Positions 21,786 through 50,163 of a DNA stretch of 64,000 nt are shown here, piece by piece. The stretch is from Daphnia pulex (lineage: Eukaryota > Arthropoda > Branchiopoda > Diplostraca > Daphniidae): contig NC_060026.1 in assembly GCF_021134715.1 (NCBI RefSeq), positions 2,294,001 to 2,358,000 on the forward strand, in the 5' to 3' direction. Position numbers and translations under genes: made by a program. The first letter of the stretch is position 1, and each line of letters begins with the position of its first letter. The notes below the pieces were generated by a model that ran no database searches, was not told where the DNA came from, and saw nothing but the letters and a program-made list of their open reading frames with translations.

Positions 21786-21917
21786 GGACCACCAGGAGTA
21801 CCAGGAGCACCAGGAGCACCAGGAAGACCAGGAGGACCAGGAAGACCAGGAGGACCCGCTGCTCCGTCAGCACCTGCTGCTCCGGATTATTATCCTGTTT
21901 ATTCACAATCAGATTAG
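21786..21917 (+). other. Possible collagen-like terminal exon
   Basis: After an AG (ATTAAG) the frame reads seven Gly-X-Y triplets (GPPGVPGAPGAPGRPGGPGR and onward), then PAAPSAPAAPDYYPVYSQSD and a stop at 21915-21917. Stops lie directly upstream in the same frame, so it needs a splice acceptor at 21785. It may be a real last exon, a relic, or a simple GGACCA-type repeat. It overlaps the outer edge of the palindrome. Confidence 0.3.
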
Positions 21918-21929
21918 GGCTTATCCACT

Positions 21930-24500
21930 GTCTCATTTTCAACTTTTTCTTCCTTGTTGATTCTGTCAATATTTATTCGTAACCCAATTTTGTTTTAAAT
22001 TTAGATAAACAGCATTCCGTTTGGAGAAACTACCGCGATGTCGGTCGAATTCTTCTTAATTTCTTTTAATCCCCTCTATCCTTGTGTACACCAGTGCGTG
22101 AGTGTATTCACGAGGACGTCCTTTCTTGTGGATGCATATTTTCCAGGCTTAAAGGTAGGAAAAATGTATCTCTATTCTTCCTTTTTTAATATTTTGTGTC
22201 GTTGATAAAGCAATGTGCAACTAGAAAATTTTCCGAGCAAGAGGGACCTGCACGCTACACCTGTGCACCTTCTCGTTTATTAAGAAAATGAACAGTAACT
22301 TTAAACTTGAATTCTCCCCCGTGCATTTGTTTTTCTCTTTTGATGTTCATCAAACGGGTTGGATTCTTACACAAGGATCTTGGCGTTTCTGACTCATTTT
22401 TATTGAAAATTGGACGTTTCCATACTTTCCAAAGTGAGTGGACTAGTAGTACACCTTGGAGTGAAATCGATAGCATGGTAAAATACCTCTAAGATAATAT
22501 ACCAAGTCGATAATAGCGTTGTTAGGTGTCGTGCATGTATCACCTCATATATTGTCTATGTTTGTGTGTGTGCTGTTCAACATCAGCTGGTTCTTTCTTC
22601 ACGTTTGACAGTTTGTTTTTCTTAGGTGTTGGAGGTATATTGGAGGTATTCGTTTATTCAAATGTGACCACAACTCGAGACAATTTCCTTAAATAGAAAA
22701 TAGGATCAACTGTGCGGAGCTGTTTTCCCTTTATTCGTTTTCTTTTTCCGTCAGCAGGTGACACATTCCTTTTTACTCTGCTAGGATTTTCATTCTTGTT
22801 TTCTTTTCTTTTTAAAAGGGCGTTTCCAAGATGAATTGGCTGGTTCAACAGGTGAAATCTATCGGCATTCCTGCACCTGTTTACCTCCCACATGGTCTCG
22901 GAACGATAGGAATAAGTGTCACGTAATAATGATCCCTACTTCTTCGTCTATACAACGTAATTGAATAACTGTGTATTGTTTACTGTGTAGGTGAGAGCTG
23001 TAGTGAAAACAACACTTGGATAAGGCAAACTTGTTTGTTCAACAAGCTTCTTCGCCTCGGAGGGTGCGGTGCAACACAATTCACGCGTAATCACGTAATC
23101 GAGTGATCTGGTATGGAAGCGCGTAATAAGATGAAGGAAATAAAGACGGTAACCAACAATCTCTTCGCCAACTGGTTTCGACTGCTTCGAGAAGTTAAAC
23201 GCCATCATTTCCAAGACAGGTGAGCAGACACTTCGATATCTCATAAAGCCCTTAACCGCGTGACGTTAGTTAACTAAAACATCACAATTTGACTGGAAGA
23301 TATCCAGACAAATTTGATTCATTGTGTATTGTTAGAAGCCATAATTTCAGTTGAGGGAAGGTACTTGATGTCATTTGACGAATTTGGGCGAAATTTGGGC
23401 TGATTGCGCCTTTCATTTAGAGGAGGAAAATAATCCCTTAAAATGCCATCATTTGCTTTGCCCGCACCGTTTATTCTTTCATTTCAATTGCCTTCAGGTA
23501 TAGATATCAATCACTAATTTATCGTGCGAATAATCCAAGTCGAGGCAAAACGAGTCAGTGACTGGAAGACGTTAGACTATTCGATGAGATGGAGCTGGTT
23601 TGGTTTAGCGAAAATTCTGAATGAATTCGTCGGCCGAGCAGCCAAATTTATGTATTCAAATCATAGCAAATGTGTCATAAAATCGAATGCACTTTGATTT
23701 AGACGGCCACTAGTCGTCGCTTTATGTACCTTCAATATGTCGGCCACACTTTTATCGACATCGTCTTCTTCGGGTAACCGATCCAAGGAGACCAATAGTT
23801 GTCGAACGCCGCAACTTTGAGCATGCTTCAATGCGATATAGCGCACCCGACTTGCTGTAAAAACAAACGATTTAAATCGGCAAATGAGAGGATATCGAAG
23901 CAGTCAACATGATATGCTACTTTACCTTATCTCTTGTTCTCAATCAATGTGACATAAAGTTCTACGTGTAAATCATTTTAACCAAAAGTCTGGCTGCCTG
24001 CCACTATGCTCATTCGTTTTTTTTTTCTTCTTTTTTCATTTAGTTTTTCTGTTGTTTTTTCGGCCCGCCATGACCAGGTAAGTTCCCTTATTTTGAGGTC
24101 ATAGATAAGTAAGATAGAGAGAGATTAATTGGCTTTAATGTTATAGTGCATATAGTGTTGTTATTGAATTTCCACAGCTAAGAAATTAAAGACCAAATAA
24201 CAAGCCATCCTAATAGGTCTCCGTCGGTAACATATAGTCCAGCGGGTATTGATTCGCGATAAACAAATCATATCAGAACTAGCTGAAACCAAATTATTCC
24301 CAAGTCACTCTGTTTGACATTCGGCAGCGCGTGCGCTTTTTCATTTTTAGAGCAAATGCTTTGTTTTCACTCAAAAATTCTAAAGTTTGTCGCGAGTTTT
24401 AAAAGTTATCCGCGTTGATTAAAATTCATTTTTGAAAGAAAAAAAAAAAAAAACTTGAAACCTTTTAAAGAGAAAGCAAAATACAGCGAATTGTGTACAC
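21930..24500. other. Outer part of left arm: mostly non-coding with relics
   Basis: No complete gene. A minus-strand exon-like block at 23854-23730 (125 nt, AG/GT borders) reads SCGVRQLLVSLDRLPEEDDV and onward; its mirror on the right has a 1-base loss. A plus-strand stretch near 23130-23215 reads NNLFANWFRLLREVKRHHFQ, faintly like the nuclease (KEN) end of IRE1-type proteins. A minus-strand frame at 22948-23244 is open in both arms but unrecognised. Confidence 0.35.
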
Positions 24501-24515
24501 ACGCAAGGACGTAAT

Positions 24516-25216
24516 CACGTGACTTATGAACTTGGAGCAGATCGCCTTTTGCACTCTACACGCTGCACGTGTAGAGTCCTTGCCGATTTGAAAATCGGAA
24601 TATCATCTGAGCTGCCCTTGTTATATGGTCTTACACGTCCTACACAACTGCAATGTGAAGCATGCAAGTTGAAGAATGTCTTGACTCGTAAGCAGACTTA
24701 AAACAGTAATGACAGAACCCAATGACTTGAATCAAATTTTTTGACTCTTCAAAATTACGAGCCAAATCTCAAATGGAACAAAATCAAAATTATCCGAGGC
24801 CACAACTTTTTATTTGCTTCTCTATTATAATAATTTGTCGTAGTTTTTAATGAAAACGCAAAAATTAATTCAATTTCAGAACACTGCAAGAGATTATACG
24901 TGCAATCAAGTACAACCAAACAAACCAAATGGTAGCCTATAATGAAATTCGAAAAAGGATGCCAATCTAGCCAAAAAATCTATCAACCACCAATCTGAGA
25001 TACAAACCAAACGTGCTGGACATCACGTAGTTCCTCTCCTGTGGCAAAATATGGGGATGCATAGAGTAAAAATAAATAACCCGATAGTTGAACGGTTCAG
25101 ATGTCAAAGTCTAGCCACTCACATTCACTCATTTGCGCATGCAGATCATCACGTGAGCCATTACAACTGTCTGCCATCTCTCTCTCTCTCCCAGCCGAGA
25201 GTCTGTGACTATAAAA
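24516..25216 (+). promoter_or_regulatory. Hemoglobin promoter with HRE-type ACGTG sites (left copy)
   Basis: TATAAAA at 25210-25216 lies 78 bases before the ATG. ACGTG cores, the binding motif of HIF in hypoxia response elements, occur at 24516-24521 and 24566-24571 (both CACGTG), 25011-25015, 25024-25028 (minus strand) and 25150-25155 (CACGTG). Oxygen-controlled induction of Daphnia hemoglobin through such sites is established; activity of these particular sites is inferred. Confidence 0.65.
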
Positions 25217-25293
25217 GGCAACTGGGAATGTTAGAGAAGACATCACTTAGCTGACTGATACTTCCAGAGCTAAACTCTTCTTAACTCGCAGCA

Positions 25294-26673
25294 ATGGCTT
25301 TCAAACTAGCCCTTCTCTTCGGCGTGATCGCTTTCGCCAGCGTTTATGTGGTAAGTCCAATTCACTCGTTTATACAATTAATTGATGTTCATTAGTTTGA
25401 AATATTTTGCAGTCTGCAACCACGACGACCACCGTCACCACTTCCGTCACCACCGTCTCGGCCGATGATGACAGCGAGGGTGGACTCTCGTTGAGCTCTC
25501 ATGACCGCAGTGTCATCCGCAAGACCTGGGACCAGGCCAGGAGAGACGGCGATGTTCCTCCTCAGATTCTCTTCCGCTTCATCAAGGCTCACCCCGAATA
25601 CCAGAAGATGTTCAGCAAGTTCGCCAGCGTTCCCCAAAACGAACTGTTGACCAACGGAAACTTCTTGGCCCAGGCCTACACCATTTTGGCCGGTTTGAAC
25701 GTCGCCATCCAGTCCCTGTCCAGCCAGGAGCTGATGGCCAGCCAACTCAATGCTCTCGGTGGAGCCCACAAGCCCCGTGGTGCTACTCCCATCATGTTCG
25801 AGGTTTGTTTAATCAAAAACTGTTTTCCAATCAAGACAAATTGAACTAGAATTTAACCCGAAATGTTTTAGCAATTCGGTGCCGTCCTCGAGGAAGTCCT
25901 CGCTGAAGAGTTGGGCAGCTCCTTCAACGCTGAGGCCAAGAGCGCCTGGAAGAACGGACTTACCGCTTTGGTTGCCGGCATCTCCAAGACCCTGAAGTAA
26001 TTCTAAATTGTCTCTTACATTACATCACTGATGCCCATTTAATATGATTGCATTAACTTGATAGGAACCCACAAGATTTGGCTGATCCCCAGACCAAATT
26101 GTCTGCCCGCCAAGTTCGTGACGTCCAGAGGAGCTGGGAAAACATCAGAAGTGGCCGCAACGCTATGGTCTCTTCCATCATGATCAAGTAATTCGTTAAA
26201 TTAGCCTATACTGTAATTTAATGTTATCATTTTTAATAACTCTTTTTGATGAAAGGCTCTTCAAGGAGACTCCCCGCATCCAGAAATACTTCACCAAGTT
26301 CGCCAATGTCCCAGTGGGATCTTTGAGCGGCGACGCCGAGTACAACAAACAAGTCGCCCTGGTCGCTGACCGTCTGGACACCATCGTCTCGGCTACCGGC
26401 GATAAACTTCAACTTTTGGGCAACATCAACTACATGCGCTACACCCACGCCGCCCGTAGCATTCCCCGTAGTGCTTGGGAGGTGAGATATGCATACATTT
26501 CATTGCTATTTACCAACGAAACTAACTTATGCACGCATGTGCATGTCTTATTTCAGGACTTTGGCCGTCTTCTGATGGAGTCTTTGTCTGCCAGCGGTGT
26601 CTCCTCTGACGATTTGGCTTCCTGGAAGGGCGCTTTGGGTGTCCTTGTCAACGGAATCTCTCCCAAGAATTAA
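25294..26673 (+). CDS. Two-domain extracellular hemoglobin, left-arm copy
   Basis: Six exons (25294-25350, 25413-25802, 25872-25996, 26065-26187, 26256-26481, 26557-26673) close in phase to 345 residues. Exon 1 is a signal peptide (MAFKLALLFGVIAFASVYV), followed by a Thr/Val-rich linker. Globin domain 1 spans about residues 40-190 (SSHDRSVIRKTWDQARRDGD; distal region HPEYQKMFSKFASVP; proximal HKPRG). Domain 2 spans about residues 195-345 (LSARQVRDVQRSWENIRSGR, TPRIQKYFTKFANVP). This two-domain secreted chain is characteristic of Daphnia hemolymph hemoglobin, which assembles into large oxygen carriers. The extra intron joining the two domains at NPQDLADP is in the expected place. The start is the only ATG after the TATA box. 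A mirrored copy at 45468-46847 shows no difference I could find. Confidence 0.96.
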
Positions 26674-27640
<967 letters not shown>

Positions 27641-27955
27641 CACGAAGTCTGTGACCTCCAGAGAAGCTGGGAAGCCATCAGTTGAGTTGCCGCAACGCCA
27701 TGGTCTCTTCTATAGTCCTCATCAAGTGAGAGTTGATAAACCAATTATCTTGTACTGTTATCAAATCTTAATTTTCTTACTCTTTTTTAAGAAATGCTCT
27801 TCAAGGAGACTCCCCGCATCCAGAAACACCTTAACAAGTTCGCCAGCGTCCCCGTACGATCTTTAGATGGAGACGCCGAATACAACACACAACTCTGCTT
27901 GTTGTGTTATTGTAGGACTTTTGCCGCCTTTTGATGGATGCTTTGCCAGCCGAGT
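27641..27955 (+). pseudogene. Hemoglobin domain-2 pseudogene fragment (left arm)
   Basis: Relic of exons 4-6 of the neighbouring hemoglobin. 27641-27726 matches the VRDVQRSWENIRSG...MVSS region but carries an in-frame TGA and a shift. 27794-27900 reads LFKETPRIQKHLNKFASVPV and SLDGDAEYNTQL. The rest jumps to DFCRLLMDALPAE and a stop, missing the middle of the exon. It lies 1 kb downstream of the intact gene in the same direction, so it is the remains of a tandem duplicate. Confidence 0.85.
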
Positions 27956-28600
27956 GATATTTAATCCATGTGATGTTTAAGATGGTATAGTATAAATACT
28001 TAAATAGGTATAAATCTTTCTGGGAAAAAAAACAAAACAAAAAGAAAAACAAACAAAAAAAAAACCTGCTTTTCCACTCGTTGCTGACTTGCTGGATGGA
28101 TTGTTTTGGGGTTTGTTCCCATGTCTAAAGAGAAATCTTAGCTCGCACCACACTAAAAGGGATAGCCTGATCGCTCGTTCCCCGTCTGTTTGTAAACGCA
28201 AGTGGGCAACCAGATGCTCTTGTAAAGAAATTACAACTTATTTGTTATAATTGTATAGCTAACTCAAATAGTATGGTTAATTTAATTTTGTGCCCCAGCT
28301 GCATTTAATAATTTGGAATTAAGACAACTCAATTTTCCATTCATTTAATAGTGTAATGTAATTGAGGGAATGTAACGGTGAACGAACTGGAATTTTCGCT
28401 TGGTGAACATTTTCGTATTCTTTTTCTATATTTAACTGCCTAGTTTTCAATCTATCCTATAAATGATAATTTAACTTGATCGAAAACGGATAAAAACATT
28501 ATTCCTTCTTAATTTTGAAAATATTTCATTCATTTCTCGTTTACTGCTCTTGGTACATAGTTCTGTTATGATTCATAACATTTAATTTTTCTTTTAGAAC
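27956..28600. other. AT-rich spacer (left arm)
   Basis: No gene seen. Contains an A-rich run at 28025-28072 and is mirrored on the right arm. Confidence 0.5.
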
Positions 28601-29760
28601 GCCAATATGTTCCATCGGGATATTCGGCCACATCATCAACAATCACAAACTATTCCAATATCTATGCATCACCTATTTTATGTGCCAGTTCCCATTTCAC
28701 TGCCTTCACAAATCAATCAACTGTAGCCAGTGGAACGTTTGGATTCAAAAGAAAGAGTTTCTCAGTTGGAAGATCAAAAGCGGATGCTGAAACTACAGAA
28801 GAAGATTCAGAAATTGTAGATTAGTTTGGAGGAAGCCAAAGCCAAACAGGCTGTTCCTCCCAGTGGAATTAAGAGCCAGCAGAGCGTCAACGACAAATCG
28901 ATATCTGCAGCTATTTTTCACTGGAGCAAGAAGCCGAACTTCGCCGAACTTTGTGTGTTCCTGAAAAGAATCATTCTACCTCATCTTGTGTCTCTTCTAA
29001 AATTCTGAATGAAATTGATCTTCTGCAAGTCCAATTGAGCAATGTGATCCCTCAACCGGAGCTGTCGTTGTCGACCGTCGTCGCATTGGAAAGATAACCG
29101 ACAACTATCAGGAGTCGATTGGGCGTGAAGAATTCGGTCAAGTCTTCAAAGAAACTTGGCATGGACGTCAAGAAGATCCTTGGCGTTGCAGCACAATCGT
29201 CGAGGCTTGATCGTTCGCCAAGATGATTCAACGAGAGGTTGAAGCCCTTTCAGCTGTTCAGCACCGTAATATTATTGGACTGCTAGATCTTCGCATGGAA
29301 AACGAATCGAGTGATGGTGAAGCATCGATTAGAGTCTCGCTTATCTTTGAATTCGCCAACGGAGGGACTCTTTTCGACTGTCTTTTCGGTGGCCAAGCAT
29401 AAAACAGCAAATTCAAATTAGACGTGAATCAAATGATGCTGATCGCTCGCCATCTCACCGCGAGACTCTCCATCTACTGCATTCCACTCAGCAGAAGCCG
29501 GGCGGTTCAGTTATGGTCCACCGTGACGTAAAATCCGCCAATGTTTTACTGCAACTGGATGACGAAGGAAGAGACCGGGAAGAGTCGTACGAGCTGTTTT
29601 GGCCGATTTTGGTTTGGCACGTTTTCATTCGGATCTCAACGAAAGTGGGGCTCTGGTCTAGCAGCCAGTTCCATGACAGCCTTGGTAGGTTACCCACGGC
29701 TATGTCGATCCTTTGTATGCGGAGGTACTGTATATTCTCAACATGTTCCAACTGATGCAG
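28600..29760 (+). pseudogene. Protein-kinase pseudogene (left arm)
   Basis: A broken serine/threonine-type kinase. From 5' to 3': a coiled-coil-like piece (ERVSQLEDQKRMLKLQKK), a Gly-loop relic (SIGREEFGQVFKETWHG), the C-helix region (IQREVEALSAVQHRNIIGLL), hinge (VSLIFEFANGGTLFDCLF), catalytic loop (VHRDVKSANVLLQLDDEGR) and an activation segment remnant leading to GTHGYVDPL in the mirror copy. Several in-frame stops and shifts (for example within the loop after FGGQA) rule out a full product. The HRDVKSANVLL loop with a short insert suggests a TKL/IRAK-like or IRE1-like family; I cannot choose. The same kinase relic is present on the right arm with different lesions. Confidence 0.7.
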
Positions 29761-29799
29761 TGTTTATTAATTATTTTTCAATTACCATTGTAGAGTTCA

Positions 29800-30375
29800 A
29801 CCTACAGACGGGCCGGCCAGTTTGCATGTCCTTCAACGCTTGAAGGTCGCGGGGAATATTACGTTAAACTCTCAATGCGGTGTTGTAGAGGTTGGGTGAG
29901 AACTGGACGTGTTGCATCATTATCAAGCAGGTACAATAGCCGCAAGGCTCAGCCATTTGGTATTCATTTTGAATTTTGATATTGGTTTTTGTAGACCCAT
30001 CCCCAGCAACGTCAACCTAAAGAAGGAAAGGCCAGTTTGCATTTTCTTTACGCTCGAAGGTCACGGAGATCTTAAAGTAAACGTGTCATGCGACGGCGAA
30101 GAGGTTGGGTGAGGACGACACGTGTTGCATCATTATCAAGCAGGTACAATAGCCGCAAGGCTCAGCCATTTGGTATTCATTTTGAATTTTGATATTGGTT
30201 GTTGTAGACCCTTCCCCAGCAACGTCAACCTAAAGAAGGAAAGGCAAGTTTGCATTTTCTTCAATTTCGAAGGTCACGGAGATACCATTACGTTAAACGT
30301 GTCATGTGGAGTAGAGGTTGGGTGAGAATGGGAAGTGTTCCATCATTATCAAGCAGGTACAATAGCCGCAAGACT
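29800..30375. repeat. Tandem repeat, unit about 213 bp (left arm)
   Basis: Units recur at a spacing of 213 bp: the block starting TGTTGCATCATTATCAAGCA appears near 29908 and 30121, and a diverged third near 30334. Units end just upstream of a TATAAAA at 30404. The right arm has about one unit fewer (41980-42310). Confidence 0.8.
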
Positions 30376-30403
30376 TAAGAGGTTAGGGGTAGAAAAAAAA
30401 TCG

Positions 30404-30480
30404 TATAAAAGGAGAGAGAAAAGGCGTTTGAAATCAGTTGAGTGAGAATCTCCGACACGGCAGCTGCTGTGTCCTATTCG
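30404..30480 (+). promoter_or_regulatory. YYT-family promoter module A, apparently without a gene
   Basis: TATAAAAGGAGAGAGAAAAG followed by the module-typical TCAGTTGAGTGAGAATCTCC and CCGACACGGCAGC. The ATG expected downstream is lost, and another module follows at about 30635. Confidence 0.55.
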
Positions 30481-30753
30481 TCACTAAATGCATTCTTCAT
30501 TCTAAAATCATTTCGCAATAAGTAAATATCCTTTTAACTTTTTGTGTCGATTTTTATTGTTTTTTTTTTCTTTTCAATTGTTAATATGCTTTTATTGAAT
30601 ATATTTAATATTCAAATTGTTTATTGTCTGTCGTATTAAAGGAGAAAAATGGCCAAAGAAATCAGTCGAGTGATCATCTCCGACACTGCAATAGCAACTG
30701 CAGTGCACTATTGATCATCAATTAATTCTTCACTGTGTAATCAGTTCGTAATC

Positions 30754-31545
30754 ATGGGTAAAATATTCATTTTTATTTTGAGTCATGAAACAATTCTATG
30801 TCATTCCTAGTTGATATGATGAGCTATAATTGAAATTAATTTTTAAATTGTTTATTGTACAGTTAATTATGGCGTTGTGCTGCTGTTGGGTCGACCACGA
30901 GTGTACCGATGTCTCCTGGATACGGTGGCCCCGAGTTACTTCACCAAAGCGCCTGAGTACTACACTGAGGCTCCCAAGTACTACACCATCAAAGCTCCAG
31001 AGTATTACACTGCAATCTACGCTGCCCCAGCTTACACCACCAAGGGACCGGAGTACTGCACCACAACCTACGCTGCTCCAGTTCACTACACCGCCCCGAG
31101 ACACAACCACATCTGAGGCAGCCAGTATTACTGCACAGCGGCTGCTTCTTAGTAACAACCTACGTTACACCTAGATGCTACACCGAAGCCCACAAGTACT
31201 GCACCGGCAAGGCCGAATATTACATAACCACGTTTGCTGCCCCAGCTACCCTGCTACACCGAGAAACCCAAGTATTTCTCTGCTTCAAGCAACTATCGAA
31301 CAGAGGCTCCTGTTGACTACACCACCCATGCCCCGGGGTTTTACAGTACAACCTACGCTGCCCCATCTACACCACCAAGGCTCCAAAGTGCTACACAACC
31401 AAGGCACCCGAGCTACTACTTAGGCTGCTCCGACTTTCTGCACCGAAGCTGCGAAATATTCCACTGCCCCGAGTTACTACACCATCAAGGCTGTTTCAAT
31501 GTTACATCACAACCTACGCTTCTCCAGTTTACTACATAATGGTGA
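30754..31545 (+). pseudogene. Tyr/Thr-repeat (YYT) protein gene copy 1, decayed (left arm)
   Basis: Exon 1 is ATGG (30754-30757), spliced to 30863. The first frame runs MVNYGVVLLLG..., then KAPEYYTEAPKYYTIKAPEY and YAAPAYTTKGPEY, to a stop at 31114-31116. Family-like sequence (TYAAP, SYYT, KYFSAPSNY in other frames) continues to about 31545, and the expected leader (STTSVPMSPGYGG) lies in another frame. There are therefore multiple frameshifts: most likely a pseudogene, possibly still yielding an 86-residue product. The family looks like secreted structural proteins made of APEYYTTK units; the role is unknown. A weak TATA relative (CGTATTAAAGGAG) stands upstream at about 30633. Confidence 0.6.
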
Positions 31546-32088
31546 AGCCAGAAATGGAAACAGGTATGGGCCCAACGGGTCTTGCTTTATTCCTCTTGTG
31601 TCTCTTCTACAAGATTAACGTCTGGAATATTTGTTAATTTTTTTTTAAATGTGAAGTAGTCAGGGTAGAGACAATATTTTGATAAAGGGATAAAAGTTTA
31701 TTTTAAAGAAGTTCTACATAACACGTGGGGTTTTGTATTGAAATTTGTTGGTATAGTTAAATGTGTGCGGCTCATGAGTTACCAGGCTGAAGCTTATTTT
31801 CTGCTAGAAATCACTTGAGTAGAATAACCAATGAAGCGTTGTTGACACTTAACTTGCATCTGACCGTGTGGAAGGCCTTTTTATTTTTTTTTCATGTTAC
31901 TTCATTTTTTCAATCATTCTCATTTCATTTCTCCAATGCTAATTTGAAGGTGACGGAGATTATGTCGTAAAATGTGCCATGTAGTGGTGTAGAGGTTGGG
32001 CAAGAACGGGACGTGTTTCATCATTATCAAAAAGGTAGAATTGCTGAAAGGCTTGAGTTGAGAGGTAAATTGGGGTTAGAAAAAGTCG
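31546..32088. other. Spacer between YYT copies 1 and 2 (left arm)
   Basis: No gene. The segment around 31930-32060 (CATTATCAAAAAGGTAGAAT) is a diverged relative of the 213-bp unit. Confidence 0.45.
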
Positions 32089-32171
32089 TATAAAAGGAGA
32101 GGAAGGTGATAGAGATTAGTCTAGTGAGCATCTCCGACCCGGCAACAACTGCTTTCTTCCAATTCTCAATC
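32089..32171 (+). promoter_or_regulatory. YYT-family promoter module C
   Basis: TATAAAAGGAGAGGAAGGTG at 32089, then TAGTGAGCATCTCCGACCCG and GCAACAACTGC, leading to CAATCATGGGTAAT, which is the ATG plus donor of exon 1. Confidence 0.6.
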
Positions 32172-32700
32172 ATGGGTAATTCGTTTATTTTACATGGAGT
32201 TTTGTATCATATAGACTTTCTTACATTTGTTCATGTGTCACTAATAGTTAAATATTTTAATGTTCACATCTAGTTAATTTATAGTCTAGTGCTGTTTGGT
32301 GTATCGTTGATGGTCGAGTCGTCCACTGGTGTACCGGTGTCCCCTGGGTGTGGCAGATACCAAACCGCAATGCTACCGTCTACCACACAACAAACATACG
32401 CAACCAGTTACTACACCTAAAAGGCCGTATGTTACACAAGGACGTATGCTACACCAGTTTACTACACCGTGGAATTCAAGTATTACTCTTCCCCGAACAA
32501 ATACCAAACAGAGGCTCTTGTTTACTACACTACCATCGCCCTCGAGTGTTACACTAAAACCTACGCTGCCCCCAACTACTACACTGTAGCTCCGAAGTGC
32601 TACACATCAATGCACAACCAATTCGCAATTGGTAAATCTGCTGTTTTACATAAATTGAATTATTCCACGTGTTCTCTAATTGTTAATTAATAACTGAAAA
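32172..32700 (+). pseudogene. YYT gene copy 2, decayed (left arm)
   Basis: Exon 1 ATGG (32172-32175) with donor, acceptor at 32272-32273. Joined in phase it meets TAG within five codons. The family leader (VESSTGVPVSPGCGRYQT) and repeats (TYATPVYYTVEFKYYS, KTYAAPNYYTVAPKCYT) follow in a shifted frame with a further stop. A third, leader-only relic (VVLLLVVLSLL then stop) lies near 32725-32775. Confidence 0.6.
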
Positions 32701-33591: not shown

Positions 33592-33599
33592 ATACTAGA

Positions 33600-38623: not shown

Positions 38624-38647
38624 GTAATATGTTTGTGTTAGTGTTAG

Positions 38648-38923: not shown

Positions 38924-39285
38924 CTTAAGTGTATGCATATGTGTATGTTTGTATGTGACTGTAAAATGTGGAGGAATTGTGGGAGGAGGTGGGACAATAT
39001 AACACAATTCTTTTTATAAGTTTTTGTTCATTGTTTCTAATTTATACCAAGTTTTGTTTATGAATTGTATCAATATATTTCTCTCAACTTCAAAGTGTTT
39101 CATTTTTACAAAGGTCACCCACTTCCCCATTACTTATAAGATTTGATAAAATCTACAGTTACAAGTGTCTTTCGTAACTAATCCTTGAAATATCATCGTC
39201 GAACCACAAGAACATGTCCGTATGAATAAGGCAGTAGTCACCTCTTAAACATAAAACAAACAATTCACAATTCAGCAGCCTGGGT

Positions 39286-39362
39286 ACTCCGCTGCCCTGG
39301 TGGTGTAGTACTCCGCTGCCTTGGTGGTGTAGTACTCCGCTGCCTTGGTGGTGTAGTACTCC
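39286..39362 (-). repeat. 24-bp minisatellite, about 3 units (right arm)
   Basis: The short allele of the array at 32963-33553. The frame from the module ATG (39413) here runs out of the repeat after GSGVPRLLNC and ends at 39159, giving an 84-residue frame. Confidence 0.9.
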
Positions 39363-39664
39363 TTTGATTGAGTATTGGAAGAATGCAATTGCTGCCGGGT
39401 AGGAGATGCTCATTCAATTGATAAATCGCCTTTTCTCTCTTCTTTTAACCGATTTTTTCTTTTCCTGTTTCACATTTTAAACTTTACGGCTATTGCACCT
39501 ATTGACATACATCTCTTGTCGTTAATAACCAAAGTCGGTGGAGTTCGGTACAGTGGTCAACACGTTAGCAACGATAGAACAACCAACAGCAGCACGACGT
39601 AAAAATAAACTGTAAACGAATAAAATAAACATTTTCAGTTATTAATTAACAATTAGAGAACATA

Positions 39665-40161
39665 TGGAATAATTCAAATTATGTAAAACAGCAGATTTAC
39701 CAATTGCGAATTGGTTGTGCATTGATGTGTAGCACTTCGGAGCCACAGTGTAGTAGTTGGGGGCAACGTAGGTTTTAGTGTAACACTCGAGGGCGATGGT
39801 AGTGTAGTAAACAGGAGCCTCTGTTTGGTATTTGTTCGGGGAAGAGTAATACTTGAATTCCTCGGTGTAGTAAACTGGTGTAGCATACGTCCTTGTGTAA
39901 CATACGGCCTTTTAGGTGTAGTAACTGGTTGCGTATGTTTGTTGTGTAGTAAGACGGTAGCATTGCGGTTTGGTATCTGCCACACCCAGGGGACACCGGT
40001 ACACCAGTGGACGACTCGACCATCAACGATACACCAAACAGCACTAGACTATAAATTAACTAGATGTGAACATTAAAATAATTAACTATTAGTGACAAAT
40101 GAACAAATGTAAGAAAGTCTATATGATACAAAACTCCATGTAAAATAAACGAATTACCCAT
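39665..40161 (-). pseudogene. YYT gene copy 2, decayed (right arm)
   Basis: ATG at 40161 with a GT donor after ATGG. The leader (MLFGVSLMVESSTGVPVSPG in an open frame) and repeats (YYTT, KTYVAP-type) are broken by frame changes. Its lesions overlap only partly with those of the left copy. Confidence 0.6.
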
Positions 40162-40816
40162 GATTGAGAATTGGAAGAAAGCAGTTGTTGCCGGGTCGGA
40201 GATGCTCACTAGACTAATCTCTATCACCTTCCTCTCCTTTTATACGACTTTTTCTAACCCCAATTTACCTCTCAACTCAAGCCTTTCAGCAATTCTACAT
40301 TTTTGATAATGATGAAACACGTCCCGTTCTTGCCCAACCTCTACACCACTACATGGCACATTTTACGGAATAATCTCCGTCACCTTCAAATTAGCAATTG
40401 ACATTGGAGAAATGTAATGAGAATGATTGAAAAAATGAAGTAACATGAAAAAAATAAAAAGGCCTTCCACACGGTCAGATGCAAGTTAAGTGTCAACAAC
40501 GCTTCATTGGTTATTCTACTCAAGTGATTTCTAGCAGAAAATAAGCTTCAGCCTGGCAACTCATGAGCCGCACACATTTAACTATACCAACAAATCTCAA
40601 CACAAAACCCCACGTGTTATGTAGAACTTCTTTAAAATAAGTCAAAAGCACTTTTATCCCTTTATCAAAATATTGTCTCTACCCTGACTACTTCACATAA
40701 AAAAAAATAAACAAAAAAAAAAAAAATATTCCAGACGTTAATCTTGTAGAAGAGACACAAGAGGAATAAAGCAAGACCCGTTGGGCCCATACCTGTTTCC
40801 ATTTCTGGCTTCACCA

Positions 40817-41603
40817 TTATGTAGTAAACTGGAGAAGCGTAGGTTGTGATGTAACATTGTAACAGCCTTGATGGTGTAGTAACTCGGGGCAGTGGAATAT
40901 TTCGCAGCTTCGGTGCAGAAAGTCGGAGCAGCCTAAGTAGTAGCTCGGGTGCCTCGGTGGCGTAGTACTTTGGAGCCTTGATGGTGTAGATGGGGCAGCG
41001 TAGGTTGTACTGTAAAACCCCGGGGCATGGGTGGTGTAGTCAACAGGAGCCTCTGTTCGATAGTTGCTTGGAGCAGAGAAATACTTGGGTTTCTCGGTGT
41101 AGCAGGGTAGCTGGGGCAGCAAACGTGGTTATGTAATATTCGGCCTTGCCGGTGCAGTACTTGGGGGCTTCGGTGTAGCATCTAGGTGTAACGTAGGTTG
41201 TTACTAAGAAGCAGCCGCTGTGCAGTAATGACGGCTGCCTCAGATGTGGTTGTGTAGCTCAGGGCGGCGTAGTGAACTGGGGCAGCGTAGGTTGTGGTGC
41301 AGTACTCCGGTCCCTTGGTGGTGTAAGCTGGGGCAGCGTAGATTGCAGTGTAATACTCTGGGGCTTTGATGGTGTAGTACTTGGGAGCCTCAGTGTAGTA
41401 CTCAGGCGCTTTGGTGAAGTAACTCGGGGCCACCGTATCCAGGAGACATCGGTACACTCGTGGTCGACCCAACAGCAGCACAACGCCATAATTAACTGTA
41501 CAATAAACAATTTAAAAATTAATTTCAATTATAGCTCATCATATCAACTAGGAATGACATAGAATTGTTTCATGACTCAAAATAAAAATGAATATTTACC
41601 CAT
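40817..41603 (-). pseudogene. YYT gene copy 1, decayed (right arm)
   Basis: ATG at 41603 with donor after ATGG. The main frame runs through KAPEYYTEAPKYYTIKAPEY, GPEYCTTTYAAPVHYA and, unlike the left copy, reads on through LSYTTTSEAAVITAQ to 41182. Further family sequence follows in other frames. Confidence 0.6.
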
Positions 41604-41979
41604 GATTACGAACTGATTACACAGTGAAGAATCAATTGATGATCAATAGTGCCCTGCAGTTGCTATTGCAGTGTCGGAGATGATCACTCGACTGATTTCT
41701 TTGGCCTTTTTTCTCCTTTAATACGACAGACAATAAACAATTTGAATATTAAATATATTCAATAAATGGCATATTAACAATTGAAAAGAAAAAAAACAAT
41801 AAAAATCGGCACAAATAGTTAAAAGGATATTTACTTATTGCGTAATGATTTTAAAATGAAAAATGCATTTAGTGACGAATAGGACACAGCAGTTGCCGGG
41901 TCGGAGATTCTCACTCAACTGATTTCAAACGCCTTTTCTCTCTCCTTTTATACGATTTTTTTTCTACCCCTAACCTCTT

Positions 41980-42310
41980 AAGCCTTGCGGCTATTGTACC
42001 TGCTTGATAATGGTGCAACACTTCCCGTTCTCACCCAACCTCTAACTCCACATGACAAGTTTAACGTAATGGTATCTCCGTGACCTTCGAAATTGAAGAA
42101 AATGCAAACTTGCCTTTCCTTCTTTAGGTTGACGTTGCTGGGGATGGGTCTACAACAAGCAATATCAAAATGAATACCAAATGGCTGAGCCTTGCGGCTA
42201 TTGAATACCTGCTTGATAATGATGCAACACGTCCAATTCTCACCCAACCTCTACACCACCGCATTGACAGTTTAACGTAATATTCCCCGCGACCTTCAAG
42301 CGTGAAGGAC
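41980..42310. repeat. 213-bp-type tandem unit, about two copies (right arm)
   Basis: Two units marked by GCTTGATAATGATGCAACAC-type blocks, against about three on the left arm. Confidence 0.7.
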
Positions 42311-42369
42311 ATGCAAACTGGCCGACCCGTCTGCAGGTTAAACGCTACAATGGTAATTGAAAAAATAAT

Positions 42370-43560
42370 TAATAAACACTGCATCAGTTGGAACATGTTG
42401 AAAATATACAGTACCTCCGCACACAAAGGATCGACATAGCCGTGGGTACCTACCACGGCTGTCATGAAACTGGCTGCTAGGCCAAGGCGGGAGCCACTTT
42501 CGTTAAGATCCAAATGAAGACGTTAAATCGTCCAAAACAGCTCGCACGACTCTTCCTTCGTCATCCCGTTGCAGTAAAACATTGGCGGATTTCACGTCAC
42601 GGTGGACCATAACTGAACCGCCCGGCTTCTGCTGAGTGGAATGCAGTAGATGGAGAGTTTCGCGGTGAGATGGCGAGCGGTCAGCATCATTTGATTCACG
42701 TCTAATTTGAATTTGCTATTTTTTGCTAGGCCGCCGAAAAGTCAGTCGAAAAGAGTCCCTCCGTTGGCGAATTCAAAGATAAGCGAGACTCTAATCGATG
42801 CTTCACCATCACTCGATTCGTTTTCCATGCGAAGATCTAGCAGTCCAATAATATTACGGTGCTGAACAGCTGAAAGGGCTTCAACCTCTCGTTGAATCAT
42901 CTTGGCGAACGATCGAGCCTCGACGACTGTGCTGCAACGCCGAGGAGAGCGGATTTCTTTGACGGCTGCTTGACATCCATGCCAAGTTTCTTTGAAGACT
43001 TGACCGAATTCTTCACGCCCAATCGACTCATGATAGTTGTCGGTTATCTTTCCAATGCGACGACGGTCGACAACGACAGCTCCGGTTGAGGGATCACATT
43101 GCTCAATTGGACTTGCAGAAGATCAATTTCATTCAGAATTTTAGAAGAGACACAAGATGAGGTAGAATGATTCTTTTCAGGAACACACAAAGTTCGGCGA
43201 AGTTCGGCTTCTTGCTCCAGTGAAAAATAGCTGCAGATATCGATTTGTCGTTGACGCTCTGCTGGCTCTTAATTCCACTGGGAGGAACAGCCTGTTTGGC
43301 TTTGGCTTCCTCCAAACTAATCTACAATTTCTGAATCTTCTTCTGTAGTTTCAGCATCCGCTTTTGATCTTCCAACTGAGAAACTCTTTCTTTTGAATCC
43401 AAACGTTCCACTGGCTACAGTTGATTGATTTGTGAAGGCAGTGAAATGGGAACTGGCACATAAAATAGGTGATGCATAGATATTGGAATAGTTTGTGATT
43501 GTTGATGATGTGGCCGAATATCCCGATGGAACATATTGGCGTTCTAAAAGAAAAATTAAA
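42370..43560 (-). pseudogene. Protein-kinase pseudogene (right arm)
   Basis: Mirror of 28600-29760. It keeps pieces lost on the left (for example the lysine-region sequence around 42925-42985, a gap in the left copy) and reads RLGLAASFMTAVVGTHGYVD, where the left is shifted. Stops remain, so it is also non-functional. Confidence 0.7.
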
Positions 43561-44185
43561 TGTTATGAATCATAACAGAACTATGTACCAAGAGCAGTAA
43601 ACGAGAAATGAATGAAATATTTTCAAAATTAAGAAGGAATAATGTTTTTATCCGTTTTCGATCAAGTTAAATTATCATTTATAGGATAGATTGAAAACTA
43701 GGCAGTTAAATATAGAAAAAGAATACGAAAATGTTCACCAAGCGAAAATTCCAGTTCGTTCACCGTTACATTCCCTCAATTACATTACACTATTAAATGA
43801 ATGGAAAATTGAGTTGTCTTAATTCCAAATTATTAAATGCAGCTGGGGCACAAAATTAAATTAACCATACTATTTGAGTTAGCTATACAATTATAACAAA
43901 TAAGTTGTAATTTCTTTACAAGAGCATCTGGTTGCCCACTTGCGTTTACAAACAGACGGGGAACGAGCGATCAGGCTATCCCTTTTAGTGTGGTGCGAGC
44001 TAAGATTTCTCTTTAGACATGGGAACAAACCCCAAAACAATCCATCCAGCAAGTCAGCAACGAGTGGAAAAGCAGGTTTTTTTTTTGTTTGTTTTTCTTT
44101 TTGTTTTGTTTTTTTTCCCAGAAAGATTTATACCTATTTAAGTATTTATACTATACCATCTTAAACATCACATGGATTAAATATC

Positions 44186-44500
44186 ACTCGGCTGGCAAAG
44201 CATCCATCAAAAGGCGGCAAAAGTCCTACAATAACACAACAAGCAGAGTTGTGTGTTGTATTCGGCGTCTCCATCTAAAGATCGTACGGGGACGCTGGCG
44301 AACTTGTTAAGGTGTTTCTGGATGCGGGGAGTCTCCTTGAAGAGCATTTCTTAAAAAAGAGTAAGAAAATTAAGATTTGATAACAGTACAAGATAATTGG
44401 TTTATCAACTCTCACTTGATGAGGACTATAGAAGAGACCATGGCGTTGCGGCAACTCAACTGATGGCTTCCCAGCTTCTCTGGAGGTCACAGACTTCGTG
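44186..44500 (-). pseudogene. Hemoglobin domain-2 pseudogene fragment (right arm)
   Basis: Mirror of 27641-27955 within the difference-free tract; same lesions. Confidence 0.85.
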
Positions 44501-44611
44501 TTCTTCTGTCTGGTGTCAGAAAATAAAATGCATTCTTTAGCAAATGATAATGCGTACAATAATGAATTCACTTTTACACTGTACTTGAAGTCCCACATTT
44601 CTTTTGGGTAA

Positions 44612-44713
<102 letters not shown>

Positions 44714-45467
44714 TGAATATCCATTTCTCCAGTGCAGGAGAAACAATCCATCGATCCTCACTTTCTGGGAGTACTGAAATGTTTTACACATTTTCTTGAA
44801 TTGAATATATTGTTCCGTCACGCGTAAGCCAGAGACCATCACCCACATCCATGAAAAACACAAGTTTACAATTGGTCAATTGTGACACAGAAGGAAACTT
44901 ACTACTTCCTATGAACGGAGTTATATTGCAAATTCCCAGTAACATTGAATATCTATTGAATATTATGAAAGGTTTATACCTCGTTACAGGTAACCTACTA
45001 CCGACGTGAATGACTGTAATGTGAATTTTAGCAGAGTGCAGACGAACTGGCTTGAAAACTGGAAAGCGGTGCTGCCAGTTAATAAATCTCATCGGCAAGA
45101 GCGAAGACAGTAATTAAATCAGGTTGAATTGAATCTGTAAGAAAATAATAACGATGGCATACCCATGGGTCAGGTAGTTCACTCTAAAATTATTGTTAAA
45201 AGTAAAACATAATTCTTCTTCTTAATTCAGTTTGGCTGAATAGTCAACAACTCCATCCTTGGAGCAGACCGAGCCAGATAAAAAGTTTTATCAGACTGTA
45301 AATTTTTTTGTAAACCCAATTTCTATCCGCGAATTCAACAGCCAACTTTGGATTGCTTAACTAATTGTATTTGAAAAAGAAAAGAACATCGATGAATAAA
45401 ATGGGCGGGAAATGATTTCTCTTCCATTCCGTGTCATTGCTTGAATGCGGACCCAAGAAAATGTGTC

Positions 45468-46847
45468 TTAATTCTTGGGAGAGATTCCGTTGACAAGGAC
45501 ACCCAAAGCGCCCTTCCAGGAAGCCAAATCGTCAGAGGAGACACCGCTGGCAGACAAAGACTCCATCAGAAGACGGCCAAAGTCCTGAAATAAGACATGC
45601 ACATGCGTGCATAAGTTAGTTTCGTTGGTAAATAGCAATGAAATGTATGCATATCTCACCTCCCAAGCACTACGGGGAATGCTACGGGCGGCGTGGGTGT
45701 AGCGCATGTAGTTGATGTTGCCCAAAAGTTGAAGTTTATCGCCGGTAGCCGAGACGATGGTGTCCAGACGGTCAGCGACCAGGGCGACTTGTTTGTTGTA
45801 CTCGGCGTCGCCGCTCAAAGATCCCACTGGGACATTGGCGAACTTGGTGAAGTATTTCTGGATGCGGGGAGTCTCCTTGAAGAGCCTTTCATCAAAAAGA
45901 GTTATTAAAAATGATAACATTAAATTACAGTATAGGCTAATTTAACGAATTACTTGATCATGATGGAAGAGACCATAGCGTTGCGGCCACTTCTGATGTT
46001 TTCCCAGCTCCTCTGGACGTCACGAACTTGGCGGGCAGACAATTTGGTCTGGGGATCAGCCAAATCTTGTGGGTTCCTATCAAGTTAATGCAATCATATT
46101 AAATGGGCATCAGTGATGTAATGTAAGAGACAATTTAGAATTACTTCAGGGTCTTGGAGATGCCGGCAACCAAAGCGGTAAGTCCGTTCTTCCAGGCGCT
46201 CTTGGCCTCAGCGTTGAAGGAGCTGCCCAACTCTTCAGCGAGGACTTCCTCGAGGACGGCACCGAATTGCTAAAACATTTCGGGTTAAATTCTAGTTCAA
46301 TTTGTCTTGATTGGAAAACAGTTTTTGATTAAACAAACCTCGAACATGATGGGAGTAGCACCACGGGGCTTGTGGGCTCCACCGAGAGCATTGAGTTGGC
46401 TGGCCATCAGCTCCTGGCTGGACAGGGACTGGATGGCGACGTTCAAACCGGCCAAAATGGTGTAGGCCTGGGCCAAGAAGTTTCCGTTGGTCAACAGTTC
46501 GTTTTGGGGAACGCTGGCGAACTTGCTGAACATCTTCTGGTATTCGGGGTGAGCCTTGATGAAGCGGAAGAGAATCTGAGGAGGAACATCGCCGTCTCTC
46601 CTGGCCTGGTCCCAGGTCTTGCGGATGACACTGCGGTCATGAGAGCTCAACGAGAGTCCACCCTCGCTGTCATCATCGGCCGAGACGGTGGTGACGGAAG
46701 TGGTGACGGTGGTCGTCGTGGTTGCAGACTGCAAAATATTTCAAACTAATGAACATCAATTAATTGTATAAACGAGTGAATTGGACTTACCACATAAACG
46801 CTGGCGAAAGCGATCACGCCGAAGAGAAGGGCTAGTTTGAAAGCCAT
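45468..46847 (-). CDS. Two-domain extracellular hemoglobin, right-arm copy
   Basis: Exons 46847-46791, 46728-46339, 46269-46145, 46076-45954, 45885-45660 and 45584-45468, the exact mirror of the left gene with the same introns. It predicts the same 345-residue secreted protein: signal peptide, Thr/Val linker, two globin domains. Both copies have intact splice sites and promoter, so both should be expressed. The two genes are transcribed towards each other and towards the palindrome centre. Confidence 0.96.
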
Positions 46848-46924
46848 TGCTGCGAGTTAAGAAGAGTTTAGCTCTGGAAGTATCAGTCAGCTAAGTGATG
46901 TCTTCTCTAACATTCCCAGTTGCC

Positions 46925-47130
46925 TTTTATAGTCACAGACTCTCGGCTGGGAGAGAGAGAGAGATGGCAGACAGTTGTAATGGCTCACGTGATGATCTGC
47001 ATGCGCAAATGAGTGAATGTGAGTGGCTAGACTTTGACATCTGAACCGTTCAACTATCGGGTTATTTATTTTTACTCTATGCATCCCCATATTTTGCCAC
47101 AGGAGAGGAACTACGTGATGTCCAGCACGT
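46925..47130 (-). promoter_or_regulatory. Hemoglobin promoter with HRE-type sites (right copy)
   Basis: TATAAAA at 46925-46931. CACGTG at 46986-46991 and ACGTG cores near 47113 and 47126-47130 mirror the left set. More distal CACGTG sites near 47470 and 47526 lie in the part where the arms differ. Confidence 0.65.
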
Positions 47131-47134
47131 TTGG

Positions 47135-50100
47135 TTTGTATCTCAGATTGGTGGTTGATAGATTTTTTGGCTAGATTGGCATCCTTTTTCGAATTTCATT
47201 ATAGGCTACCATTTGGTTTGTTTGGTTGAACTTGATTGCACGTATAATCTCTTGCAGTGTTCTGAAATTGAATTAATTTTTGCTTTTTCATTAAAAAAAC
47301 TACGACAAATTATTTAATAGAGAAGAAAATAAAAAGTTGTGGCCTCGGATAATTTTGATTTTGTTCCATTTGAGATTTGGCTCGTAATTTTCAGTTGTGT
47401 AGGACGTGTAAGACCATATAACAAGGGCAGCTCAGATGATATTCCGATTTTCAAATCGGCAAGGACTACACGTGCAGCGTGTAGAGTGTAGAGTGCAAAA
47501 GGCGATCTGCTCCAAGTTCATAAGTCACGTGATTACGTCCTTGCGTGTGTACACAATTCGCTGTATTTTGCTTTCTCTTTAAAAGGTTTCAAGTTTTTTT
47601 TTTTTATTTTTTTCTTTCAAAAATGATTTTTAATCAACGCGGATAACTTTTAAAACTCGCGACAAACTTTACAATTTTTGAGTGAAAATAAAACATTTGC
47701 TCTAAAAATGAAAAAGCGCACGCGCTGCCGAATGTCAAACAGAGTGACTTGGGAATAATTTGGTTTCAGCTAGTTCTGATATGATTTGTTTATCGCGAAT
47801 CAATACCCGCTGGACTATATGTTACCGACGGAGACCTATTAGGATGGCTTGTTATTTGGTCTTTAATTTCTTAGCTGTGGAAATTCAATAACAACACTAT
47901 ATGCACTATAACATTAAAGCCAATTAATCTCTCTCTATCTTACTTATCTATGACCTCAAAATAAGGGAACTTACCTGGTCATGGCGGGCCGAAAAAACAA
48001 CAGAAAAACTAAATGAAAAAAGAAGAAAAAAAAAAAAAACGAATGAGCATAGCGGCAGGCAGCCAGACTTTTGGTTAAAATGATTTACACGTAGAACTTT
48101 ATGTCACATTGATTGAGAACAAGAGATAAGGTAAAGTAGCATATCATGTTGACTGCTTCGATATCCTCTCATTTGCCGATTTAAATCGTTTGTTTTTACA
48201 GCAAGTCGGGTGCGCTATATCGCATTGAAGCATGCTCAAAGTTGCGGCGTTCGACAACTATTGTCTCCTTGGATCGGTTACCCGAAGAAGACGATGTCGA
48301 TAAAAGTGTGGCCGACATATTGAAGGTACATAAAGCGACGACTAGTGGCCGTCTAAATCAAAGTGCATTCGATTTTATGACACATTTGCTATGATTTGAA
48401 TACATAAATTTGGCTGCTCGGCCGACGAATTCATTCAGAATTTTTGCTAAACCAAACCAGCTCCATCTCATCGAATAGTCTAACGTCTTCCAGTCACTGA
48501 CTCGTTTTGCCTCGACTTGGATTATTCGCACGATAAATTAGTGATTGATATCTATACCTGAAGGCAATTGAAATCAAAGAATAAACGGTGCGGGCAAAGC
48601 AAATGATGGCATTTGAAGGGATTATTTTCCTCCTCTAAATGAAAGGCGCAATCAGCCCAAAATTCGCCCAAATTCGTCAAATGACATCAAGTACCTTTTC
48701 TCAACTGAAATTATGGCTTCTAACAATACACAATGAATCCAATTTGTCTGGATATCTTCCAGTCAAATTGTGATGTTTTAGTTAACTAACGTCACGCGGT
48801 TAAGGGCTTTATGAGATATCGAAGTGTCTGCTCACCTGTCTTGGAAATGATGGCGTTTAACTTCTCGAAGCAGTTGAAACCAGTAGGCGAAGAGATTGTT
48901 GGTTACCGTCTTTATTTCCTTCATCTTATTACGCGCTTCCATACCAGATCACTCGATTACGTGATTACGCGTGAATTGTGTTGCACCGCACCCTCCGAGG
49001 CGAAGAAACTTGTTGAACAAACAAGTTTGCCTTATCCAAGTGTTGTTTTCACTACCGCTCTCACCTACACAGTAAACAAAACACAGTTATTCAATTACGT
49101 TGTATAGACGAAGAAGTAGGGATCATTATTACGTGACACTTATTCCTATCGTTCCGAGACCATGTGGGAGGTAAACAGGTGCAGGAATGCCGATAGATTT
49201 CACCTGTTGGACCAGCCAATTCATCTTGGAAACGCCCTTTTAAAAAGAAAAGAAAACAAGAATGAAAATCCTTGCAGAGTAAAAAGGAATGTGTCACCTG
49301 CTGACGGAAAAAGAAAACGAATAAAGGGAAAACAGCTCCGCACAGTTTATCCTATTTTCTATTTAAGGAAATTGTCTCGAGTTGTGGTCACATTTGAATA
49401 AACGGCCCAATATCTCCAACACCTAAGAAAAACAAACTGTCAAACGTGAAGAAAGAACCAGCTGATGTTGAACAGCACACACACAAACATAGACAATATA
49501 TGAGGTGATACATGCACGACACCTAACAACGCTATTATCGACATGGTATATTATCTTAGAGGTATTTTACCATGCTATCGATTTCACTCCGAGGTGTACT
49601 ACTAGTCCATTCACTTTGGAAAGTATGGAAACGTCCAATTTTGAATAAAAATGAGTCAGAAACGCCAAGATCCTTGTGTAAGAATCCAACCCGTTTGAAC
49701 ATCAAAAGAGAAAAACAAATGCACGGGGGAGAATTCAAGTTTAAAGTTACTGTTCATTTTCTTAATAAACGAGAAGGTGCACAGGTGTAGCCGTAGCGTG
49801 CAGGTCCCTCTTGCTCGGAAAATTTTCTAGTTGCACATTGCTTTATCAACGACACAAAATATTAAAAAAGGAAGAATAGAGATACATTTTTCCTACCTTT
49901 AAGCCTGGAAAATATGCATCCACAAGAAAGGACGTCCTCGTGAATACACTCACGCACTGGTGTACACAAGGATAGAGGGGATTAAAAGAAATTAAGAAGA
50001 ATTCGACCGACATCGGTAGTTTCTCCAAACGGGATGCTGTTTATCTAAATTTAAAACAAAATTGGGTCACGAATCAATATTGACAGAATCAACAAGGAAG

Positions 50101-50163
50101 AAAAAGTTGAAAATGAGGCAGTGGATAAGCCCTAATCAGATTGTGAATAAACAGGTTAATAAT
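47135..50163. other. Outer part of right arm: non-coding with relics
   Basis: Mirror of 21886-25000. It lacks an insert of about 105 bp found at about 24651-24755 on the left and has many single differences. The exon-like block opposite 23730-23854 carries a 1-base loss here. Confidence 0.5.

What the first reader, a model, noticed from the sequence alone, without database searches (positions are those of the whole stretch)
21886..50163. A palindrome of about 28 kb carrying two convergent intact hemoglobin genes
Seen directly: 14.5-kb and 13.7-kb arms are reverse complements of each other, with a spacer of about 17 bp. Each arm has an intact hemoglobin, a hemoglobin relic, a kinase relic, YYT genes and two MITEs at mirrored places. 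Known Daphnia hemoglobin clusters are tandem, so an inverted amplified unit would be a different amplification mode and resembles gene-bearing palindromes on sex chromosomes. The arms differ by many substitutions and indels, so this is not a simple read fold-back. It could still be two haplotypes falsely joined head-to-head.
Basis: partly seen in the sequence, partly recalled or inferred. Interest (0 to 1): 0.9.

Follow-up and report, generated by a model that had tools for sequence, protein, structure and literature searches.

The report
Hemoglobin palindrome with mosaic-age arms
A stretch of water-flea-type DNA carries a 28-kb mirror-image duplication with one complete hemoglobin gene in each half; the two genes are letter-for-letter identical although much of the mirror sequence around them has drifted apart, which suggests that the halves copy sequence onto each other, but sequencing reads are needed to rule out an assembly error.

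Summary
The palindrome is in the sequence. Arms 21886-36424 and 36442-50163 surround a 17-bp spacer. The two flanks do not match each other. Each arm holds a complete six-exon, 345-residue, two-domain hemoglobin gene; the two are convergent.

The arms fall into five blocks: outer 1.5%; a 4,198-bp block with no difference at all, holding the hemoglobin gene, its upstream region and a hemoglobin relic; 3.0%; 0.1%; and a central inverted repeat at 11.5%.

Most likely this is a true inverted segmental duplication whose arms exchange sequence by gene conversion, most recently over the hemoglobin gene. The old centre fits a pre-existing short inverted repeat that seeded a fold-back duplication; an older palindrome with later-homogenised arms is the main alternative. 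A plain head-to-head join of two haplotypes is disfavoured because the flanks differ; an inversion-polymorphism chimera, or a double misassembly, is not excluded without reads.

Gene-bearing palindromes with gene conversion are described off sex chromosomes (Drosophila Hsp70 and Amy; passages of PMC3924832), so I file it as a new member of a known kind.

The parts
21886..36424 (+). left arm of the palindrome
36442..50163 (-). right arm of the palindrome
36425..36441 (.). 17-bp spacer between the innermost 22-bp perfect stems
35813..37157 (.). central inverted repeat, 11.5% divergent (67 of 583 aligned sites); 86 bp (37158-37243) beside it occur in R only
24913..29110 (+). left copy of the 4,198-bp tract identical between arms
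   Evidence: exact string match
43031..47228 (-). right copy of the 4,198-bp identical tract
   Evidence: exact string match
25294..26673 (+). complete two-domain Hb gene, exons 25294-25350, 25413-25802, 25872-25996, 26065-26187, 26256-26481, 26557-26673; 345 aa
   Evidence: GT/AG at every splice site; Pfam globin in the stretches holding both domains; PDB globins match both domains
45468..46847 (-). complete two-domain Hb gene, identical DNA to the left copy
27641..27907 (+). Hb relic, part of domain 2 with stop codons
44234..44500 (-). Hb relic, right arm
34715..35812 (.). second near-identical tract (1 substitution in 1,100 sites), ending at the edge of the old centre; R partner 38338 to about 37243
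32962..33552 (+). 24-bp minisatellite, 24.6 copies (R partner 39284-39362, 3.3 copies)
34153..34432 (.). MITE-like element 1, 24-nt terminal inverted repeats (R partner 38646-38925)
34773..34968 (.). MITE-like element 2 (R partner 38088-38280)
20488..21592 (+). left flank: WD40-repeat gene exons, outside the palindrome
50870..53776 (.). right flank: histone quartet H2A(-), H2B(+), H4(-), H3(+) with four histone 3' stem-loops, outside the palindrome
   Evidence: the H4 name rests on recall (its Pfam Histone score, 21.9, is under the cut-off)

Best explanation
A true inverted segmental duplication (gene-bearing palindrome) on a daphniid chromosome. Inferred origin: a short, already diverged inverted repeat (about 0.6 kb per side, 17-bp loop) lay at what is now the centre; after a break, the single strand folded back on it, synthesis primed from the fold copied about 14 kb of neighbouring DNA with its Hb gene, and the end was resolved into unrelated sequence. 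The arms then diverged by mutation while discrete gene-conversion tracts reset parts of them. Shown: the structure, the complete genes, the five-block divergence mosaic, the 4,198-bp zero-difference tract over the Hb gene. Inferred: that the molecule exists as assembled, that the zero tracts are inter-arm conversion, and that the centre predates the arms. Expected effect: two co-regulated identical Hb copies (extra dose), kept alike by conversion.
For: Exact reverse-complement identity over 4,198 bp that includes introns, upstream DNA and a relic, so coding constraint cannot explain it. At the rate seen elsewhere in the arms 88.8 substitutions and 18.5 indels would be expected there; the longest event-free gap in 2,000 uniform shuffles was 724. 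Blocks 43/2920, 0/4190, 138/4600, 1/1100 and 67/583 show sharp steps, as conversion tracts do. At L 35812 divergence jumps from 0 events in 540 bp to about 11%. The outer 150 bp show 6 substitutions, far fewer than the 11.5% of the centre would give (P 0.001), so an arm end that should also escape conversion is not as old as the centre. The centre alone folds at -365 kcal/mol against -76.4 (sd 5.3) for 20 shuffles. Flanks do not match each other (0 hits). Outside support: in yeast, inverted Alus with a 12-bp spacer still raise rearrangement at 86% and 75% homology (PMC10164571, one section read); fold-back priming at short inverted repeats makes inverted duplications (PMC10622511, abstract and part of the discussion; PMC3907307, abstract). 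Inter-arm tracts of 2-9 kb are reported for human Y palindrome P6 (PMC3723533, passages).
Against: No reads, depth or second assembly could be examined (no genome held), so the centre and both edges are unverified. Identical tracts are also expected between haplotypes of a clonal daphniid that lost heterozygosity (mean tract 320 kb in D. obtusa, PMC12926508 passages). The centre is itself uneven: 5/152 in one patch against 62/436 elsewhere (P 7e-6, patch chosen after seeing the data), so conversion may reach it, which weakens both 'centre never converted' and a single old age. The outer-edge test uses nested windows picked after the fact. No outgroup, so direction of conversion, ancestral side and the age order are untested.
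Confidence: 0.6

Rival explanations
1. Old palindrome, younger arms: the whole palindrome, centre included, arose at one time (as old as the 11.5% centre), and conversion has since homogenised the arms at several times but seldom the centre.
For: Mosaic of 1.5, 0, 3.0, 0.1 and 11.5%; substitution-to-indel ratio in the centre (67:9) is like the arms', as for ordinary divergence over a longer time.
Against: Outer arm end shows 6/150, not 11.5% (P 0.001); the step falls exactly at an 86-bp R-only segment, where two different sequences could have been joined. Neither point is strong.
Confidence: 0.22
2. Assembly artefact: two haplotypes, one with this segment inverted (or a further wrong join at one edge), were merged into one contig, giving arm(hap1)-arm(hap2).
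For: No reads checked; clonal daphniids are heterozygous and lose heterozygosity in tracts (PMC12926508 passages); erroneous scaffolding makes artificial palindromes (PMC7953838 passages).
Against: A plain head-to-head join predicts matching flanks; there are 0 hits between them. 3.0% over 4,600 sites is well above the 0.57% heterozygosity quoted for D. obtusa lines (P 1e-53) and above its higher pi_s of 1.7% (P 4e-10); but the species here is unknown, the block was chosen as the most diverged long one, and hybrids can exceed this. The join would need to fall inside a 0.6-kb inverted repeat with a 17-bp loop.
Confidence: 0.15
3. Single-molecule fold-back read or polymerase artefact.
For: Near-zero spacer.
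Against: 182 substitutions in 12,806 sites with 97 transitions and 85 transversions, large indels, separate decay of the kinase remnant, and distinct flanks.
Confidence: 0.01
4. The zero-difference tract is a consensus artefact: a real palindrome whose reads were mis-assigned so that the two Hb regions were polished to one sequence.
For: Cannot be excluded without reads.
Against: Polishing would have to equalise 4,198 bp exactly while leaving 1.5% and 3.0% differences on either side.
Confidence: 0.05

Closest known systems
Drosophila Hsp70Aa/Ab (and Ba/Bb) and Amy-p/Amy-d palindromic gene pairs (PMC3924832, passages)
   Same: Two copies of a gene in mirror orientation, homogenised by ectopic gene conversion.
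   Different: Different gene; here the identical tract includes non-coding DNA and a relic (Amy conversion is described as largely coding), arms are about 14 kb with a 17-bp spacer, and the centre is more diverged than the arms.
Human Y palindromes such as P6 (PMC3723533, passages)
   Same: Large inverted repeats, kilobase conversion tracts.
   Different: P6 arms are about 0.02% different with a spacer of about 46 kb; here arms are a mosaic of 0-3% with a 17-bp spacer; sex linkage not testable.
Fold-back inverted duplications (PMC10622511, PMC3907307, PMC10164571; parts read)
   Same: Short inverted repeat at the centre of a larger inverted duplication.
   Different: Those are mostly new events in yeast or patients, often with terminal deletion; this would be an old, interstitial germline one.
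Daphnia pulex Hb1-Hb8 cluster (PMC2678976, passages and part of the results)
   Same: Two-domain secreted Hb; of 17 distinct peptides listed for Hb3, Hb4 and Hb5, LFKETPR and QVALVADR occur exactly in the window protein, others with changes (compared by eye).
   Different: Here one complete gene plus one relic per arm in inverted order, not eight clustered genes.

Membership tests
Gene-bearing palindrome with arm-to-arm gene conversion | Long inverted repeat with a short spacer | tested here: met
   (in the assembly; not in reads)
Gene-bearing palindrome with arm-to-arm gene conversion | Intact genes in both arms | tested here: met
Gene-bearing palindrome with arm-to-arm gene conversion | Arms homogenised by conversion rather than recent duplication | tested here: inconclusive
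   Block mosaic and a 4,198-bp zero tract fit conversion; no outgroup or population data, and allelic loss of heterozygosity would look alike if the arms were haplotypes
Sex-chromosome palindrome | Lies on a sex chromosome or non-recombining region | not testable with these tools
   No genome held
Fold-back inverted duplication | Short inverted repeat present at the centre before the duplication | tested here: inconclusive
   Centre more diverged (67/583) than arms, with a sharp step; no ancestor sequence
Fold-back inverted duplication | Dicentric intermediate or terminal deletion | not testable with these tools
   Needs chromosome-scale comparison
Daphniid two-domain hemoglobin | Signal-peptide exon plus two globin domains | tested here: met
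   Gene model (the N-terminus looks like a signal peptide by eye; no predictor run); Pfam globin 47.5 and 38.5 bits against a cut-off of 22
Daphniid two-domain hemoglobin | Phylogenetic placement among daphniid Hbs | not testable with these tools
   No eukaryote genomes searchable; Hb found no relative in genome contigs or viral contigs

The most novel reading that the evidence does not exclude
The centre is a fossil of the seed: a pre-existing, diverged 0.6-kb inverted repeat that nucleated a 28-kb germline palindrome in an animal, after which the arms became a five-age mosaic with the youngest conversion tract centred on the Hb gene, possibly because selection for identical, doubled hypoxia-response Hb copies favoured that tract.
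Probability: 0.35. Interest if true: 0.6.

Novelty: new member of a known kind. Interest (0 to 1): 0.45.

Why it matters
If the molecule is real, it shows a second mode of Hb amplification in daphniids, in which inverted copies are kept alike by conversion. It would also give a dated case in which the centre and arms of one palindrome have different ages, so that fold-back seeding and conversion of an old palindrome can be told apart with one outgroup. With published Daphnia mutation rates (2.3e-9 to 9.0e-9; passages) the identical tract is at most about 40,000-155,000 generations old (95% bound), the 3.0% block 1.7-6.7 million and the centre 7-27 million. These ages assume neutral divergence and a rate like those species'.

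Tried and rejected
Rejected: read fold-back (substitution spectrum); purifying selection as the cause of the identical tract (it includes introns, a relic and intergenic DNA). Tried without result: own-genome search (none held); Hb relatives in genome contigs (81 pattern matches, 0 relatives) and viral contigs (9 matches, 0 relatives); Pfam at E 0.01 for the ORF 35330-35614, for 29354-29755, 28579-28821, 22954-23265, 34282-34674 and 14863-16233 (0 families each) and at E 0.001 for 17564-17980, 18802-19167, 6920-7312 and 61074-61535 (0 each). Looking for the ancestral side of the duplication at the edges: a collagen-like GXY reading frame in L runs across 21886 to a stop near 21917, but without an outgroup it decides nothing. 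The 86-bp R-only segment and the 100-bp L-only segment match nothing else in the window.

Paper searches for an earlier report: searches found 0 papers; one search found 15 and one search found 14, and the titles listed gave no inverted Daphnia Hb pair; others (977 papers, 25 listed; 124, 15 listed) were seen only as listings; paper PMC3529199 is not held. One search required 3 of 5 terms. So absence in print is shown only for these searches of an open-licence library.

Results against my reading that I keep: the right flank has one weak match to both arms (37 bp, 86%, E 1.8e-4; window about 59502-59537 against about 28031-28067 and its mirror; it overlaps an A-rich tract of the arms); the centre holds a less diverged patch.
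Full report
What is there. Self-comparison of the 64-kb window shows inverted matches over 21886-50163. The innermost perfect stem is 22 bp (36403-36424 with 36442-36463) around a 17-bp spacer, midpoint 36433. The edges are sharp: homology starts at 21886 and 50163 with ATTATTA on both sides. The 21.9-kb left flank and the 13.8-kb right flank do not match each other (0 hits), the left flank does not match the arms (0 hits), and the right flank has one weak 37-bp match to each arm in an A-rich stretch. The left flank ends with a WD40-repeat gene; by recall it resembles Jouberin/AHI1, which no call tested. The right flank begins with a histone quartet with four histone stem-loops. So each flank looks like ordinary unique sequence.

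Genes. The left Hb gene has six exons with GT and AG at every splice site and encodes 345 residues. The two stretches that hold its domains score 47.5 and 38.5 bits for the Pfam globin model, above the cut-off of 22, and PDB globins match both domains. The right gene lies in a stretch that is an exact reverse complement. Two of 17 distinct peptides listed for D. pulex Hb3, Hb4 and Hb5 occur exactly in it and others nearly (PMC2678976, table read; compared by eye). It is therefore a daphniid-type Hb, species unknown. RCGTG motifs, the core of hypoxia-response elements (motif recalled), lie at 24898, 25011 and 25151 on the + strand; the last two are inside the identical tract. An Hb relic lies downstream in both arms.

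Divergence. A MAFFT alignment of the arms and a segmentation with a penalty per segment give five blocks, from outside to centre: 43/2920, 0/4190, 138/4600, 1/1100 and 67/583 substitutions per aligned site. The zero block is exactly 4,198 bp (L 24913-29110, R 43031-47228). With all 220 arm events placed at random, no gap in 2,000 shuffles exceeded 724 bp. The tract contains introns, upstream DNA and a relic, so it is not explained by constraint on protein. Arm differences are substitutions (182 of 12,806 sites, 97 transitions, 85 transversions) rather than read errors: 39 indels, 12 of them 1 bp, 1 of these 12 in a homopolymer of 5 or more.

Centre. The central inverted repeat is at 11.5% and uneven: 19/170, 15/71, 5/152 and 28/195. 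Its edge is sharp: 0 events in the 540 bp before L 35812, then an 86-bp segment present only in R, then the diverged repeat. As DNA the inner 895 bases fold at -365 kcal/mol, against a mean of -76.4 for 20 shuffles.

How it works, most likely. Shown: structure, complete genes, mosaic. Inferred: (i) a short diverged inverted repeat seeded fold-back synthesis and copied the neighbouring 14 kb; (ii) later inter-arm conversion reset two or more tracts, the latest over the Hb gene; (iii) both Hb copies are used. Point (i) rests on the centre being older than the arms and on the arm's outer end (6/150 substitutions) being younger than the centre (P 0.001; nested windows chosen after the fact). The alternative, an old palindrome with conversion-renewed arms, differs only in when the arms arose. 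Yeast work shows that inverted repeats of 75-86% homology with a 12-bp spacer still raise rearrangement (PMC10164571, one section) and that fold-back priming at short inverted repeats gives inverted duplications (PMC10622511, abstract and part of the discussion).

Artefact. A plain head-to-head join of haplotypes should continue into matching flanks; it does not. A chimera of two haplotypes that differ by an inversion would give the observed layout, and loss of heterozygosity would give identical tracts, so I keep 0.15 for artefact. The 3.0% block exceeds the heterozygosity quoted for D. obtusa (0.57%; PMC12926508 passages; test), but the species here is unknown and the block was picked as the most diverged long one.

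Comparison. Palindromic Hsp70 and Amy pairs in Drosophila with ectopic conversion (PMC3924832 passages) are the closest kind; human Y palindromes share the form (PMC3723533 passages). PMC7953838 (passages) screened 23 of 26 asexual animal genomes for palindromes and names D. pulex among the three not screened; it warns of scaffolding artefacts. Hence: new member of a known kind, interest 0.45.

Noticed in passing
21791-21856: A 9-bp minisatellite (ACCAGGAGG, 7.3 copies) lies 30 bp outside the left edge of the palindrome, inside a collagen-like GXY reading frame that runs across the edge.
   Followed up: partly
50870-53776: Compact histone quartet with four histone 3' stem-loops next to the right edge.
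   Followed up: partly
35330-35614 (-) and 37442-37729 (+): A 95-codon reading frame, identical in both arms, inside the second near-identical tract; no Pfam family at E 0.01 (left copy tested).
   Followed up: partly
36743-36797 and 36928-36982: Direct duplication of about 55 bp inside the right half of the centre, with no second copy in the left half.
   Followed up: no
28950-29800 and 42330-43195: Kinase remnant differs between arms: the left copy lacks 18 bp at the catalytic-lysine segment and has an in-frame stop.
   Followed up: partly
29887-30372: 213-bp tandem repeat, 2.3 copies in the left arm; 211 bp, about one unit, is absent from the right arm.
   Followed up: no
62284-62357: tRNA-Ile (AAT) gene on the - strand.
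   Followed up: no
9473-9760 and 12560-12862: Two similar Hsp20/alpha-crystallin reading frames in the left flank (Pfam for the first only).
   Followed up: no
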